A stretch of DNA of 64,000 bases from Sedimenticola selenatireducens DSM 17993 (GCF_000428045.1 NZ_ATZE01000015.1:70028-134027); one strand, 5' to 3'. Counted from the first letter of the stretch, positions 36,003 through 42,833 are shown. Program-made: numbers and translations. Notes: generated by a model not told the origin, from the sequence alone.

Positions 36003-36602
36003 ATGATGCAGACTTCCAGGCACCTGTTTTCAGCTCTCCCCACATTTTTGCCAACAAATAGAACGGCCGGCGCAAAGAAGCCTCTTCCAAGCCAACGATT
36101 CAGGCCAGGCGTTGAAGCAACGAAGCACAAATATCGCACCATCATTTTTGCTGGTGTCGTCGCCCTACTCTCCAACGGCTGTGCCAGCAACGGATCGGAC
36201 AAACAGACGATAGGCGCTATAACCGGCGCTGTTATCGGCGGTGTAATTGGCAACCAGATCGGCAGTGGCAGCGGCCGGACGCTCGCAACTGGTGCAGGGG
36301 TTCTTCTCGGCGCACTCGCAGGTAGCCGAATCGGCAGTTACCTGGAGGAGCAGGACCGCATGAAACAAGCAAAGGCTACCGCCGAGGCGCTCGACAACAC
36401 GGAACGGAATGAGGTGGCCTGGCAAAATCCCGACAGCGGTGTAAAGGGAACGGTCGAGGCCGAACCCGTCGTAGTCGATAGGCAGGCCAATCTGCAGTGC
36501 CGCGTGGTAAAGCAGAAAGTCCGACTGTCGGACGGCCAGACAATGGATGAAGACCTGAAGTTCTGCCGGGGACCCGGAGACGACTGGGAGCTCTCCACAT
36601 GA
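36003..36602 (+). CDS. glycine-zipper (17 kDa antigen-like) lipoprotein
   Basis: This 199-aa envelope protein has a lipobox-like LLSNGCAS at about residues 55-62. A double glycine zipper follows (AITGAVIGGVIGNQIGSG and TGAGVLLGALAGSRIGSYL), as in Rickettsia 17 kDa-type outer-membrane lipoproteins. The C-terminal domain has two Cys (LQCRVVKQKV, LKFCRGPG). About 40 polar residues precede the hydrophobic signal, unusually many. There is no other start codon nearer the signal in this frame, and GAAGGAG lies seven bases before the ATG. It is upstream of the FecR-like gene by 99 bp. Confidence 0.75.
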   Translation: MMQTSRHLFSALPTFLPTNRTAGAKKPLPSQRFRPGVEATKHKYRTIIFAGVVALLSNGCASNGSDKQTIGAITGAVIGGVIGNQIGSGSGRTLATGAGVLLGALAGSRIGSYLEEQDRMKQAKATAEALDNTERNEVAWQNPDSGVKGTVEAEPVVVDRQANLQCRVVKQKVRLSDGQTMDEDLKFCRGPGDDWELST

Positions 36603-36701: not shown

Positions 36702-38165
36702 TTGATACGCAACGGCACAAGCCAGCACTGTAATATTTTGGTGATCGCTTGGGCCTTGCTAACGCTCGCCCTTGCGCCCAATGCGCAATCTGCAGACCAA
36801 AATGCTGGTGACGCAGGCATCAAGATTGTCCTGCGCAATGCAGTATCCGGGGATCGACCCGCCGACCCGGCTGAGTTCGCGGATATTCTCATCGTCAGGG
36901 ATCGTCGATCAATCCCGGTCGTGCCCAACATGCGCCTGCGTCCGGGCGACCTTGTTTCCACCGGCAATCTTGAAGCGGTAATTACCTTCAACGGTGACGA
37001 AAAAGAGCTTATCGTTGGCAGTAACAGCCAGATTGACATCCTGAACCCTTCGATCAGAGCGGTTATCGGTGAGGTGGTCGTGAAAATTAAAACCGGGGTG
37101 ACCAAAGCAGCCACCGCAACACGTGACCTGTTCCGTGTTGAAGGCGAATTCGTCCGCGCAGCGGCCGAGGGCACGATTTTCTATTTCCGCACCTCAGCGG
37201 AGGCAACGGAGGTCCGTGTGTTCGAGGGGCGGGTACGCATGGAACCCAATCTTAACGAGGCGGAATCACTCTTGCTGGAAGCGGGGGAAATCGCGACCTA
37301 CCAGCCGAATAAAACACCGGTAAAACACCGGATGAGCAGCGACCAGATCAATGAGATCCTGGTTAAGGTACGTCGGGTCGAGCATGCAGTCCCGCCCTAT
37401 TCCGGGCGCCAGATCATGCCGCCGCCAGAACCGCAACCGGTGGTACCAAAGCCACCCGACACCCCGGTGATTACTGCGTCAACAGACAGACCTGAACTCG
37501 TGCAGGAGGTAAAACGCCTGCTGCTTGCATTGGGTTACGACCCGGGTCCACTGAACACAAACGAGAACGAATCCACCACGGCCGCCGTACGCGCATTCAA
37601 ACAAAGTCGTAATTTGCCCGGACCGGCACAAATTGATGAGCCACTCGCCCGAGTACTGAGAACTGAGAAAAATACGCTCGACAGACGCCAGCCGCTGCCA
37701 CCGCTGGACCGCGGATCGATTAAAGGCATAGATGCAGCCGCGGGCAAAAAAGTATACACAAAGAACGTCATGACGGCCGATGAGCTGATCGAGTGTATTC
37801 GCCAGGACCAGCGGGCCGAAGCAGGGAAATCAGCACTGGACGCGACCATGGCAGAGCTGGATGCCAGAAAAAAGCTACTGGAGAATTTGGCAGAGGCACT
37901 GGATCAGCTGTACAAAAATCTGGATCGATCCGATCAGACTGCCGTGGACAGCTACAATGCAAGAATTACCGACTACCAGTTACTGGCAGAAAAATTCAAT
38001 ACAGAAGAGATTGGAAGACACAGAGAGCTGTTGAAGTCGTACAACGACGCACTGAATGCATGCGAAAAGATGTGCGCCAACCGGCAATACTATATTGATG
38101 ATTACCTGGTGGCGCGGGATACACTTCGATTGAAAGAGCCGCACGACTCACGCTGCGGGATATGA
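36702..38165 (+). CDS. periplasmic FecR-domain / peptidoglycan-binding protein (TTG start)
   Basis: This 487-aa exported protein has a signal peptide at residues 1-31 (WALLTLALAPNAQSA) and a FecR-type domain at about 75-205 (LRPGDLVSTGNLEAVITF, FRVEGEFVRAAAEGTIF, RVFEGRVRM, LLEAGEIATYQ). Next come a Pro-rich linker (231-255), a peptidoglycan-binding-1-like domain (264-320; EVKRLLLALGYDPGPLNT, AVRAFKQSR) and a charged coiled coil (about 355-450) with several Cys near the end. The start is a TTG with GAGG eight bases upstream. It converges on the TIR-CHASE2 gene. FecR proteins are often encoded beside CHASE2 sensors, so it may be the wall-anchored ligand or co-sensor. Confidence 0.75.
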   Translation: MIRNGTSQHCNILVIAWALLTLALAPNAQSADQNAGDAGIKIVLRNAVSGDRPADPAEFADILIVRDRRSIPVVPNMRLRPGDLVSTGNLEAVITFNGDEKELIVGSNSQIDILNPSIRAVIGEVVVKIKTGVTKAATATRDLFRVEGEFVRAAAEGTIFYFRTSAEATEVRVFEGRVRMEPNLNEAESLLLEAGEIATYQPNKTPVKHRMSSDQINEILVKVRRVEHAVPPYSGRQIMPPPEPQPVVPKPPDTPVITASTDRPELVQEVKRLLLALGYDPGPLNTNENESTTAAVRAFKQSRNLPGPAQIDEPLARVLRTEKNTLDRRQPLPPLDRGSIKGIDAAAGKKVYTKNVMTADELIECIRQDQRAEAGKSALDATMAELDARKKLLENLAEALDQLYKNLDRSDQTAVDSYNARITDYQLLAEKFNTEEIGRHRELLKSYNDALNACEKMCANRQYYIDDYLVARDTLRLKEPHDSRCGI

Positions 38166-38188
38166 CCTGACGGCTGTTGAAAAGAGGA

Positions 38189-38208
38189 ATGGCCACAACA
38201 GTGGCCAT
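38189..38208. terminator. hairpin between convergent FecR and TIR-CHASE2 genes
   Basis: ATGGCCAC and GTGGCCAT form a perfect 8-bp stem with loop AACA in the 51-bp gap between the two stop codons. It has no T run but is placed to mark both transcript ends. Confidence 0.5.
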
Positions 38209-38216
38209 GTCACCTT

Positions 38217-39932
38217 TCATACCAGCCACTTGGTGGAAAAACGCCGGAACAACAGGTACGCGACAGTCAGGGTAAACAGGTCGTAGGCAGTATGTAGCAG
38301 AAGATTCTCCTCGGCGACCAGATAAACCGATAACAGCAGATATAAAAACATCAGCACAGCGAATACCAGACGACGAAAATAAGCGGGCCTGCCAAACAGC
38401 TTTATTCCCAGCCAGGCCCCCAGGCTGGATATTGCCAGCATCAGAAAAACCTGAGGGTAGACGCCCAATGGCCGGACTATCCGGTTTGTTACAAGCGTGT
38501 TGATCGCATCGGCGTATAGTTCGTAACCGTAACGCTGTTCCGGCCCGAGGCCGTAGGCAACAGTAAACTCCTCTTCGGGGGCCTCAAGGCCAACAATTAC
38601 CGTTCGCCCCCGGATTATGTTTCCGTCAAATTGACCGGCCAGGACGGCGTTCATATCTATGCGCCTGTCATATGCACGTAACGCCGCCAAAGGACTGAGA
38701 CGCAACAGGATCAGCGCCGACTGCGTATCTGGATTCATTGCCTTACACCCTTTGGGCGTTGCGTGAATCCGCTCCAGCAGGGAGATCGGGTATTGGAGTT
38801 TCCTTCCATCGCCTGCGGCAAGCGTCAGCGAGTTCGATTCCGGGTTGAGGGAGTCGACGGAAACCCGTCCGGCGGCTCCCAGCAATGCGATACCCGGAAG
38901 ACTGCTAATCCGATCCGGTTCATTCCTGGATTCCGCCTCCCGGTAATTCATCGCTATCGGCATCATCATCGTGTAACCGAGGCGTCTGCCCACGCAGACC
39001 AGGCCGAGCCCACCGACTGATTCCGCCAGTATTTTTACCGCCCGCGGCTTTCTCTCTTCCAGCTCAGCGAACCCGAAGAACACGCTTGTTCCCGCATCTG
39101 CCGCCGCCTCGAATGCGGCCGATAACGTTTCATCCTGATCACGTGATTCATGAAAAACAAGATCCAGGAGGATGGCGCCGGCACCGGCTTCAGTAAGTCT
39201 GGATATCAGTTCGGCGTAGGTGGCGCGGGCAGAGGGTGCATGCGTATTAAAGGTCCCGGGTATGGCAACCAGCGATACATTTGCTTCGAGCTGCGCGGGG
39301 AAGAGCATATCGGCCAGTGCGAGCGACCATGTGGTGGTGCGCGTCTCCAGGGTGAAGAGATCCAGAAGACCGACCCACAGAATAACCAGCATCAGCAGCG
39401 TAATTGCCGGAACCGACCAGCGCTTGGACCGTTCCAGCACGCGGCGTCCCTGTTCCCAACGCAGCTTCTCGCGCAGGCCGCGCCCGGTTATCCGGGCGAT
39501 CAGATTCTCCAGGTCGGCATTAAAGGTCTCATGCCGAATACTGAGTGTCTGCATCCCGGCAAGCGGGGAGAGTAGCGCGGGCAGCTCTTCGTTAGCCAGT
39601 GGCGGGACATCCTCGAGCAGCACGGGTATCAGTTTTTTTTTCTTCTCCAGCGCTGACGCTATCTCCCACCTGGTCACGTCATCGGGATTGTCAAGACGTC
39701 GAACCCCGTTGGGTTCGGTCATCGTCAGCCATTCGCGTCCGATGAGGACTATCATGATATCCGATGAATCTATTCGCGCACCGAGCACATTGCGCCAGTT
39801 TTCACCGGCAGGAATACCCTCGACATCCATGAAAATATCCCAATCCGACTGCGCGGCCCGCAGACGGTCGTATACCAGCCGGGAGTAGCCGGAACTCTCT
39901 TTTCGCCTGTAACTGATAAAGACTTTTTTCAT
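38217..39932 (-). CDS. TIR-CHASE2 membrane protein
   Basis: This 571-aa protein has an N-terminal cytosolic TIR-type domain at about residues 1-130 (MKKVFISYRRKESSGYSRLV, IFMDVEGIPAGENW, SSDIMIVLIGREWL, VTRWEIASALEKKKKLIPVL). Glu90 is in the place of the catalytic glutamate of NAD-cleaving TIRs. A transmembrane helix (173-192) leads to a periplasmic CHASE2 domain (about 195-490; AGAGAILLDLVFHESRDQD, RGRTVIVGLEAPEEEFTVAYG, ELYADAINTLVTNR), followed by three more helices (491-511, 522-541, 548-562). CHASE2 usually feeds kinases or nucleotide cyclases; a TIR output at the N-terminus is unusual. The ATG at 39932 has AAGGCGGG upstream. The neighbour is a FecR/peptidoglycan-binding protein. Confidence 0.8.
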   Translation of the reverse strand: MKKVFISYRRKESSGYSRLVYDRLRAAQSDWDIFMDVEGIPAGENWRNVLGARIDSSDIMIVLIGREWLTMTEPNGVRRLDNPDDVTRWEIASALEKKKKLIPVLLEDVPPLANEELPALLSPLAGMQTLSIRHETFNADLENLIARITGRGLREKLRWEQGRRVLERSKRWSVPAITLLMLVILWVGLLDLFTLETRTTTWSLALADMLFPAQLEANVSLVAIPGTFNTHAPSARATYAELISRLTEAGAGAILLDLVFHESRDQDETLSAAFEAAADAGTSVFFGFAELEERKPRAVKILAESVGGLGLVCVGRRLGYTMMMPIAMNYREAESRNEPDRISSLPGIALLGAAGRVSVDSLNPESNSLTLAAGDGRKLQYPISLLERIHATPKGCKAMNPDTQSALILLRLSPLAALRAYDRRIDMNAVLAGQFDGNIIRGRTVIVGLEAPEEEFTVAYGLGPEQRYGYELYADAINTLVTNRIVRPLGVYPQVFLMLAISSLGAWLGIKLFGRPAYFRRLVFAVLMFLYLLLSVYLVAEENLLLHTAYDLFTLTVAYLLFRRFSTKWLV

Positions 39933-41168: not shown

Positions 41169-42107
41169 TCATCTATCAGGGCTCATGGCGGCAAAACTCT
41201 TATCCTTCCATTCTCCGCCAGCAGCCAGGACCAGGGATTTATTTATCGCATCCGGCGTCGCCATAATCTGGGTAAACCCATGCTCGCCGACCATTCTCAG
41301 ATCAGGAAAATTAACGGCAATTCGAAAGCGTGGCGCCAGTGCAACCACCTCTCTACCGACAACCAGAAGTTCGTAGGGCAGATGGGCCGTCTGCTTGAGC
41401 GCCTTGTAATCGATCACTTCCATCACCCGCCTGTCGTCCGCCATCCCTTCAGAGAGGGCGACACCAAACACAGATATATCCGAATGAGGAATATCGAGCC
41501 GGTAGACCAGACTGGTCCCACCACGGCCATTGGCGAGGGAGGCCTCCACAGCATTGAGCGCCTCCCGGTGGCTGTCGTATCGCGCCAGGTCCAGCGGGTC
41601 ATCGAAATATTCCATGCCAAACGTGTAGTGGTATTTGCGCAGTTTTCTTGCTGTCAGTCCCTTGGACCCAAAATATTCAACCGCCCCCAACGCGGCCGCC
41701 AGTTTTTTAGTCACTGGTCCAACGTCACCCGACACCCGGTAGGCATGGGCAAAATAGTCTGGATTGGTGTAGGCGATCTGAAGGCCTTTTTTCGTCTGGG
41801 TAATGGCCACGCGCTGCGCTGACATATAGGCGGCGTTGGATTCTCCTGCGGCCAGAGCAATTAGATCGTCATTGGTCACAATGACGATATGTGCCTGCTC
41901 ATAGGGGATGTATTCCCCTACCACTGTAAACTGCTGAGCCTCCAGCGCCTCTTTTACCCGCTCAACGGTGGACGCAAAGTCACTATCCGAACCGTTTGCC
42001 AGGACAAAGGGTTTGAGTTTTTCTGCAGCAAAGCTACTGGAAAAAACACTCAACAAAACCAGAAACGTGTATACAAGCAACCCGAAACGGGACATAGCTG
42101 ATCTCAT
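41169..42107 (-). CDS. secreted protein with DUF302-like domain(s)
   Basis: This 312-aa exported protein has a signal peptide (FGLLVYTFLVLLSVFSSSFAA). The first mature domain resembles the DUF302 fold pattern (STVERVKEALEAQQFTVVGE, then IAYTNPDYFAHAYRV at its end). The second half (YRLDIPHSDISVFGVAL, PYELLVVGREVVALAPRFRI) may be a diverged repeat of it; this is weak. The ATG at 42107 has GGAGG seven bases upstream and is chosen over one nine codons earlier. A true DUF302 protein is found at 63213. The function is unknown; periplasmic location is inferred. Confidence 0.6.
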   Translation of the reverse strand: MRSAMSRFGLLVYTFLVLLSVFSSSFAAEKLKPFVLANGSDSDFASTVERVKEALEAQQFTVVGEYIPYEQAHIVIVTNDDLIALAAGESNAAYMSAQRVAITQTKKGLQIAYTNPDYFAHAYRVSGDVGPVTKKLAAALGAVEYFGSKGLTARKLRKYHYTFGMEYFDDPLDLARYDSHREALNAVEASLANGRGGTSLVYRLDIPHSDISVFGVALSEGMADDRRVMEVIDYKALKQTAHLPYELLVVGREVVALAPRFRIAVNFPDLRMVGEHGFTQIMATPDAINKSLVLAAGGEWKDKSFAAMSPDR

Positions 42108-42833
42108 CTCCACTCCTCCCTTGGTTTTTTGCATTTTTCCCGGTGATAGCCCGGGGGATCGGCTAACTTTGAACGACCCTGTTTACTTAGTTATTATCTA
42201 TGTGGGCATTGTCGCCTTGCCCAACGGCAAAAACTTTTTTTGTCAGGTGCGCTGTAACGATTACCTGCCTGGCGGCTGCTCCGGCACCGTCCGCTCCCGG
42301 CTCATTATCGCAATAACGGATCCTTACATCTGGGGGAGAGCAGTGATGAACAACCGCTGCTTGATTCAAACCGCCTGCCTCCGTCCTCAAAAACAGGGAT
42401 AGGATTTTGCTTTCAGCAAATACCCAAGGTGCCGCCCAACCCCCGCTACAGCACTTTGTAACATAGCTGTGTTTATAGCCAGTGACCAGAACTACGTCCA
42501 TTTTATGAGAACTTGCTTCCGTTTCATCAAGAATCCTCCATCTCTGTCAGGATTTCAAGTACTGCACCCGTTTTGGCCTATTCAGGCAGAATTGGCCGAA
42601 CAGGTTTAGATTCCGGATAAACCACGCGGATTAGCTGTGTTCACCTGCCACCCCGAAGCAAGCGCTACAATTAAAGTAGAGATTGTAAGGATGTAAATCC
42701 AATTTGACTCTGCTCTAATGAAGCGCATCTCTATGCTTACGTTATCGGTTATGCCATCCATACCCTGTAGTACTGATACGAAGACCCTTTTTTATCGGTT
42801 TGCTGACAAACCACCACGACTGGTCAACGCGCA
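42108..42833. other. 726-bp region without a supported gene
   Basis: I find no convincing coding sequence here. A 104-codon minus-strand frame (42187-42501) has an unlikely composition and no domain. The region has mixed composition, becoming AT-richer towards 42833. It must hold the promoters of the divergent secreted-protein gene and the boxA-like gene, but no clear sigma-70 match is seen. Confidence 0.4.

What the first reader, a model, noticed from the sequence alone, without database searches (positions are those of the whole stretch)
36702..39932. Convergent FecR/peptidoglycan-binding protein and TIR-CHASE2 membrane protein
A TIR domain with a glutamate at the NADase position (Glu90) is fused to a transmembrane CHASE2 sensor. 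Beside it is an exported protein with a FecR domain, a peptidoglycan-binding domain and a coiled coil. FecR-CHASE2 neighbourhoods are known with cyclase or kinase outputs. Replacing these with an N-terminal TIR would make a wall- or envelope-damage sensor with an NAD-depleting or cyclic-ADP-ribose-type output. That could be a defence or stress system. The functional link is inference.
Basis: partly seen in the sequence, partly recalled or inferred. Interest (0 to 1): 0.75.

Follow-up and report, generated by a model that had tools for sequence, protein, structure and literature searches.

The report
TIR-CHASE2 receptor with FecR wall-binding partner
Some environmental proteobacteria carry a membrane receptor that puts a Toll-type (TIR) enzyme domain inside the cell and a sensor domain outside it, almost always next to a gene for an exported, often cell-wall-binding partner protein, which suggests an outside-to-inside alarm that acts on the coenzyme NAD when the envelope is disturbed.

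Summary
The + strand gene (36702-38165) encodes an exported FecR + PG_binding_1 + coiled-coil protein. The - strand gene (38217-39932) encodes a TIR-TM-CHASE2-3TM protein. I found ten further TIR-CHASE2 genes (about 30-72% identical), and 10 of the 11 have a FecR gene beside them; the eleventh genome has a FecR-PASTA gene elsewhere. Gene order varies (convergent, divergent, codirectional) and so does the partner's wall module (PG_binding_1, 5-7 PASTA repeats, or none), yet the pairing persists. In controls, 22 of 29 other CHASE2 genes have a FecR neighbour, against 0 of 26 other TIR genes, so FecR goes with the sensor and TIR is the exchanged output. The predicted TIR fold is closest to the SARM1 NADase TIR (Z 19.4, 2.1 A over 137 residues); Glu90 aligns with SARM1 Glu642 and is invariant. 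The family also has an invariant periplasmic Cys pair not seen in other CHASE2 domains. Best reading: an envelope-sensing receptor whose output is a TIR NADase, a new output variant of the known FecR/CHASE2 pair, not found described in the paper library. NADase activity, ligand and any defence role are untested.

The parts
36003..36602 (+). Glycine-zipper (Rick_17kDa_Anti/17 kDa antigen-type) exported protein gene, just upstream of the FecR gene; an optional third member, conserved beside the pair in L046
   Evidence: Pfam PF05433 34.2 bits, cut-off 24.2; same gene next to FecR and TIR-CHASE2 in L046
36702..38165 (+). Exported FecR + PG_binding_1 + coiled-coil protein, the putative periplasmic, wall-binding partner
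   Evidence: 409-bit homologue next to TIR-CHASE2 in L046
36702..36794 (+). Signal peptide (MIRNGTSQHCN-ILVIAWALLTLALAP-NAQSA), residues 1-31
   Evidence: by inspection; no signal-peptide program was available
36954..37238 (+). FecR domain, residues 85-179
   Evidence: PF04773 26.4 bits, cut-off 24
37494..37619 (+). PG_binding_1 domain, residues 265-306
   Evidence: PF01471 28.4 bits, cut-off 23
37797..38090 (+). Coiled-coil-like region, about residues 366-463
   Evidence: sub-threshold matches to coiled-coil models such as OmpH and Exonuc_VII_L; inspection
38217..39932 (-). TIR-TM-CHASE2-3TM receptor-like protein, 571 aa
39501..39923 (-). Cytoplasmic TIR domain (residues 4-144), SARM1-like fold
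   Evidence: PF13676 50.9 bits; Z 19.4 to SARM1 TIR
39663..39665 (-). Glu90, aligned with SARM1 catalytic Glu642; invariant in 11 of 11
39348..39404 (-). TM1 (residues 177-195)
   Evidence: hydropathy and positive-inside pattern; helix 153-192 in the model
38424..39386 (-). CHASE2 domain (residues 183-503 by Pfam), periplasmic between TM1 and TM2
   Evidence: PF05226 61.8 bits; model of residues 193-492 pLDDT 91.6, pTM 0.91
38994..38996 (-). Cys313, invariant in TIR-CHASE2, absent from 24 other CHASE2 proteins
38745..38747 (-). Cys396, invariant in TIR-CHASE2, absent from 24 other CHASE2 proteins
38247..38450 (-). TM2-TM4 (residues about 495-513, 522-540, 544-562), C-terminus cytoplasmic

Best explanation
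This is a two-gene envelope-to-cytoplasm signalling module. The FecR protein is exported and, in this genome, carries a peptidoglycan-binding domain; it reports on the wall or outer envelope to the periplasmic CHASE2 domain of the second protein. A change in that contact (loss or gain of FecR binding, possibly gated by the TIR-CHASE2-specific C313-C396 cysteine pair) is passed through TM1 to the N-terminal TIR domains. These assemble in the membrane plane into the composite active site known from SARM1-type TIRs and cleave NAD+ with Glu90. The outcome would be NAD loss, growth arrest or a signalling nucleotide upon envelope damage or attack. Shown here: domain architecture, topology, SARM1-like fold with Glu90 at the catalytic position, FecR pairing that is retained despite rearrangement, and the family-specific cysteines. 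Inferred: FecR-CHASE2 contact, the ligand, oligomerisation, NADase activity and physiological role.
For: TIR-CHASE2 recurs in 10 further loci with FecR adjacent in 9 of these plus the window; arrangement varies but the pair persists (convergent: window, L047, L048, L049; divergent: L046; codirectional downstream: L050, L052, L053, L054, and L051 with one gene between). FecR genes number only 2-5 per genome. Controls: FecR beside 22 of 29 other CHASE2 genes, 0 of 26 other TIR genes. Partners carry PG_binding_1 (window, L046) or 5-7 PASTA repeats (L034, L035, L048, orphan L071). TIR fold nearest SARM1, Z 19.4, rmsd 2.1 A over 137 residues; E90 aligns with E642 and G43 with G601; SYRR motif, G43 and E90 invariant. 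Topology N-in/CHASE2-out/C-in by helices and charge. FecR/CHASE2 with kinase output in Burkholderia (PMC5192318) and with adenylate cyclase in Campylobacterota (PMC9239204).
Against: No biochemical evidence of NAD cleavage; a conserved Glu is not proof, since many TIRs are scaffolds. FecR-CHASE2 contact is inferred from adjacency only. Five of ten adjacent FecR partners have no recognisable wall-binding domain. In G137 the nearest orthologue (72%) has no FecR neighbour, although a FecR-PASTA gene exists on another contig. Most genomes are metagenome assemblies. FecR matches in L035, L046 and L054 are below Pfam's cut-off (21.2, 21.4 and 19.3 bits against 24), although a local FecR profile finds them strongly, and that profile was trained on them.
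Confidence: 0.55

Rival explanations
1. Same module, but the TIR is a catalytically silent or weak scaffold that recruits another cytoplasmic protein, as many animal TIRs do; the FecR/CHASE2 pair signals through protein recruitment.
For: Same fold serves as adaptor in animals; plain alignment cannot show catalysis; Trp89 next to Glu90 is not conserved in L052-L054.
Against: Best structural match is the NADase SARM1 TIR, not adaptor TIRs; Glu90, SYRR and the BB-loop Gly43 are invariant across homologues only about 30% identical.
Confidence: 0.2
2. An anti-phage abortive system that specifically senses phage adsorption or lysis proteins at the wall, with the TIR acting like Thoeris ThsB to make a cADPR-type signal read by a separate effector.
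For: TIR part matches PADLOC ThsB (37 bits) and NCBIfam ThcB4 (46.8 bits); sporadic distribution, 7 of 210 genomes of the order.
Against: Those matches cover residues 2-63 only and are far below the NCBIfam cut-off of 220 bits; no ThsA-like gene was noticed beside the pair; neighbours are housekeeping genes; none found in viral contigs.
Confidence: 0.2
3. An ordinary environmental or redox sensor of the CHASE2 kind, in which TIR tunes NAD metabolism or a nucleotide signal for adaptation (for example biofilm, as in the FecR/CHASE2 kinase operon of Burkholderia), not cell death.
For: FecR/CHASE2 kinase and cyclase modules are tied to biofilm and cAMP signalling (PMC5192318, PMC9239204); a TIR-CHASE2-specific cysteine pair in the periplasm could be a redox switch.
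Against: No measured phenotype either way; known active TIR NADases are mostly linked to death or immunity (established knowledge).
Confidence: 0.25
4. The two genes are neighbours by accident.
For: They are on opposite strands here, and the 72% orthologue in G137 lacks the FecR neighbour.
Against: 10 of 11 loci paired where about 0.3-0.7% is expected per locus; pairing survives change of gene order; 0 of 26 TIR controls.
Confidence: 0.02

Closest known systems
FecR (LysM) / CHASE2 histidine kinase operon, BiofilmReg of Burkholderia (PMC5192318)
   Same: Exported FecR protein with a wall-binding domain encoded next to a CHASE2 membrane protein with one TM before and three after the sensor domain
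   Different: Output there is a C-terminal PAS/histidine kinase with a response regulator; here an N-terminal TIR and no regulator gene; wall module here is PG_binding_1 or PASTA instead of LysM; the kinase operon is codirectional
FecR / CHASE2 adenylate cyclase clusters (Campylobacterota, PMC9239204)
   Same: CHASE2 membrane sensor clustered with a FecR-domain outer membrane protein
   Different: Output is cAMP; clusters with phosphodiesterase and TPR genes
Metacaspase-CHASE2 of Trichodesmium (PMC3501461)
   Same: N-terminal effector domain, one TM, CHASE2, three TMs: the same topology with a death-type effector in the cytoplasm
   Different: Caspase-like protease instead of TIR; single cyanobacterial sequence in that paper; no FecR pairing seen in the passages read
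SARM1 TIR NADase
   Same: Nearest solved fold (Z 19.4); catalytic Glu642 and Gly601 positions shared
   Different: SARM1 has ARM-SAM control and no transmembrane sensor; about 22-24% identity; activity of the bacterial protein untested
Thoeris ThsB / ThcB4 TIR proteins
   Same: Related TIR family by partial profile matches
   Different: No ThsA-type partner seen beside the pair, fused to a membrane sensor, matches cover about 60 residues only

Membership tests
FecR/CHASE2 signalling pair | CHASE2 domain in a membrane protein with 1 TM before and 3 TM after | tested here: met
   PF05226 over cut-off; helices and charges
FecR/CHASE2 signalling pair | Adjacent gene for an exported FecR-domain protein | tested here: met
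   window and 9 of 10 other loci
FecR/CHASE2 signalling pair | Cytoplasmic output is a kinase, cyclase or GGDEF domain | tested here: not met
   Only TIR_2 and CHASE2 over the curated cut-offs in the 571 aa protein; hence filed as a variant, not a member of the kinase or cyclase classes
TIR NADase | TIR fold | tested here: met
   PF13676; Z 19.4 to SARM1 TIR
TIR NADase | Catalytic Glu at SARM1 E642 position | tested here: met
   alignment, invariant in 11
TIR NADase | NAD+ hydrolase or cyclase activity | not testable with these tools
   needs enzyme assay
Thoeris | ThsB TIR protein over the curated family cut-off | tested here: not met
   46.8 bits against cut-off 220, residues 2-63 only
Thoeris | ThsA (SIR2/SLOG/macro) effector gene nearby | tested here: inconclusive
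   none noticed among the neighbouring ORFs listed, but not every neighbour was scanned against families and the rest of the genome was not searched
Metacaspase-CHASE2 (death effector on CHASE2) | Caspase-type peptidase domain | tested here: not met
   no peptidase family; the shared point is topology only

The most novel reading that the evidence does not exclude
A bacterial functional counterpart of the Toll pathway: a soluble or lipid-anchored peptidoglycan-binding protein outside, a single-chain transmembrane receptor, and a cytoplasmic TIR whose enzymatic output (NAD cleavage) is switched by the state of the cell wall, so that wall breach by phages, predators or antibiotics triggers NAD-based arrest or death. 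As far as I could find, this would be the first outside-in transmembrane TIR NADase receptor described in bacteria.
Probability: 0.3. Interest if true: 0.85.

Novelty: new variant of a known kind. Interest (0 to 1): 0.62.

Why it matters
Among the bacterial TIR enzymes I know of (Thoeris, SPARTA, SpbK), the trigger is cytoplasmic. A recurrent, transmembrane, envelope-facing TIR with a wall-binding partner would give NAD-based immunity or stress signalling a route for sensing events outside the cytoplasm. It would also make the unknown ligand of CHASE2 testable: the FecR partner with PASTA, PG_binding_1 or LysM modules points to peptidoglycan, and a TIR output gives an easy read-out (NAD level, toxicity).

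Tried and rejected
(1) Accidental adjacency: rejected by the survey and controls. (2) Whole-class and phylum searches for the family (about 370-400 genomes each) found no other genome with a match. This is weak evidence of absence, because only 3-4 candidates per genome were scored in those large runs; a positive control with all candidates scored rang in all six known genomes tested besides the window's own. (3) Plasmids, viral contigs and PHROGs: TIR-only or no matches. (4) CHASE2 fold: a confident model (pLDDT 91.6) gave no clear solved relative (best Foldseek E 4e-3, best VIA Z 5.4) and no convincing sequence match in the PDB, so no ligand class could be borrowed. (5) Insertion-site test: congeners G084 and G127 have the upstream glutaredoxin gene (73-75% identical) in an unrelated neighbourhood, and the downstream SDR gene did not ring; inconclusive. 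(6) TIR tree: TIR-CHASE2 TIRs cluster (one origin not ruled out, but branch support only 40/78); two firm subgroups of 8 and 3. (7) Terminator and promoter scan: counts at chance level. (8) PADLOC hit PD-T4-6 for the FecR-PASTA partners is due to PASTA repeats only, with no kinase domain. (9) Distance between C313 and C396 in the model could not be measured, because coordinates are not released.

Full report
What is there. The window (gammaproteobacterial by its relatives, G000, 4.59 Mb in 37 contigs) holds two convergent genes with stop codons 51 bp apart. 36702-38165 (+) encodes a 487-aa exported protein with FecR (PF04773, 85-179) and PG_binding_1 (PF01471, 265-306) domains and a coiled-coil-like C-terminus. 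38217-39932 (-) encodes a 571-aa protein with TIR_2 (PF13676, 4-144) and CHASE2 (PF05226, 183-503); these four domains are above Pfam's curated cut-offs. Upstream of the FecR gene, in the same direction, is a glycine-zipper (17 kDa antigen-like) gene, 36003-36602.

Topology and fold. Four hydrophobic segments (177-195, 495-513, 522-540, 544-562) and a consistent positive-inside pattern across 11 homologues place TIR and the C-tail in the cytoplasm and CHASE2 in the periplasm. The AlphaFold2 model agrees (pLDDT 85.9; TIR 1-150, long helix 153-192, CHASE2, three terminal helices). The TIR part matches SARM1 TIR structures best (Z 19.4, rmsd 2.1 A, 137 residues, 23% identity), ahead of SPARTA, plant and adaptor TIRs. 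In the sequence alignment to SARM1, Glu90 falls on the Glu of WVHKEI, which is residue 642 when the numbering is anchored on the structural register (model residue 3 = SARM1 563), and Gly43 falls on Gly601. FISYRR, Gly43 and Glu90 are invariant among 11 homologues. CHASE2 alone gave a very confident model (pLDDT 91.6, pTM 0.91) but no clear solved relative.

Relatives. A search of 195 genomes of the same order, later all 210 held, found 7 genomes with 8 full-length TIR-CHASE2 genes, window included, in 4 of 61 genera. Seven other members of the window's own genus in the first sample lack it, so the distribution is sporadic. A scan of one genome for each of 84,980 species with a CHASE2 pattern returned the seven non-window genes plus three new ones: ES_M_Gamma_066 (L046), Thauera sp. 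UBA6194 (L048) and Burkholderiales REEB376 (L054). That makes 11 in all, at about 30-72% identity to the window protein. The scan depends on one short conserved peptide pattern, so it will miss members.

The pairing. In 10 of 11 loci a FecR gene lies beside TIR-CHASE2. It is convergent in the window, L047, L048 and L049; divergent in L046, where the glycine-zipper/FecR pair is kept but lies on the other side; codirectional and overlapping or nearly so in L050, L052, L053 and L054; and codirectional with one solute-binding-protein gene between in L051. The wall module also varies: PG_binding_1 (window, L046), 5-7 PASTA repeats (L034/L047, L035/L049, L048), or FecR alone (the other five). Most partners have a lipobox-like N-terminus by inspection. 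The exception, G137, has the 72% orthologue next to ribosomal protein genes and an unpaired FecR-PASTA gene on another contig. These genomes have 2-5 FecR genes each, so chance adjacency within two genes is about 0.3-0.7% per locus. The loci are related by descent and not independent, but the change of orientation and partner type argues for selection to stay together.

Which half does FecR belong to? With one FecR profile, 22 of 29 other CHASE2 genes of the order had a FecR neighbour within 1.5 kb, against 0 of 26 other TIR genes. FecR therefore follows CHASE2, and TIR is an exchanged output. This agrees with published FecR/CHASE2 kinase operons (PMC5192318) and adenylate cyclase clusters (PMC9239204). 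The window's own genome also has a LysM-FecR protein and a CHASE2 histidine kinase elsewhere.

A family signature. Cys313 and Cys396 are invariant in the 11 TIR-CHASE2 proteins and absent at those positions from 24 other CHASE2 proteins, which nevertheless share the core CHASE2 residues (R236, D257, D267, G310, G448, G469, and E471 in all but one). In the periplasm such a pair could form a disulfide or a redox switch; this is inference.

Mechanism. Proposed: FecR protein at the wall or outer membrane -> CHASE2 -> TM1 -> TIR-TIR assembly -> Glu90-dependent NAD+ cleavage. The first arrow rests on adjacency and on the FecR/CHASE2 precedent. The last rests on fold, residue conservation and established SARM1 enzymology. 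The middle is inference. Defence is possible but not favoured: PADLOC and NCBIfam see only a partial ThsB/ThcB4 match, neighbours are housekeeping genes, and no ThsA-like gene was noticed nearby, although not every neighbour was scanned.

What is known. The only paper in the library naming both CHASE2 and a TIR domain does not describe a fusion in the passage that names CHASE2 (PMC8195603). FecR and TIR domain co-occur in one unrelated paper. The nearest architectural precedent is a metacaspase-CHASE2 protein with the same topology in Trichodesmium (PMC3501461). The finding is thus a new output variant of the FecR/CHASE2 pair. The library omits most subscription papers, so novelty is provisional.

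Noticed in passing
36003-36602 (+): Glycine-zipper 17 kDa-antigen-like gene precedes the FecR gene; the same pair is kept in L046, so it may be a third component in the PG_binding_1 subtype.
   Followed up: partly
L047 and L050 (both JANTHJ, Chromatiales bin2008): One genome carries two different TIR-CHASE2/FecR pairs, one with a FecR-PASTA partner and one with a short FecR lipoprotein.
   Followed up: partly
L041:4640-6736, L042:5656-6534, L043:5746-6759: Three further TIR_2 proteins in the window's genome without CHASE2 or FecR neighbours, one with a zinc ribbon; the order is rich in this TIR family.
   Followed up: partly
L051 (same locus as L037:7753-8640): A PstS-like solute-binding protein gene lies between TIR-CHASE2 and its FecR lipoprotein gene.
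   Followed up: no
41169-42134 (-): Exported 321-aa protein with no Pfam match close to the TIR-CHASE2 gene.
   Followed up: no
L071:8149-10368 (-): Unpaired FecR protein with seven PASTA repeats in G137, in a genome whose TIR-CHASE2 gene is elsewhere beside the rpsF region.
   Followed up: partly
L034, L035, L048, L071 FecR partners: FecR fused to PASTA repeats on a lipoprotein in Gram-negative bacteria, outside the usual kinase/PBP setting of PASTA.
   Followed up: partly
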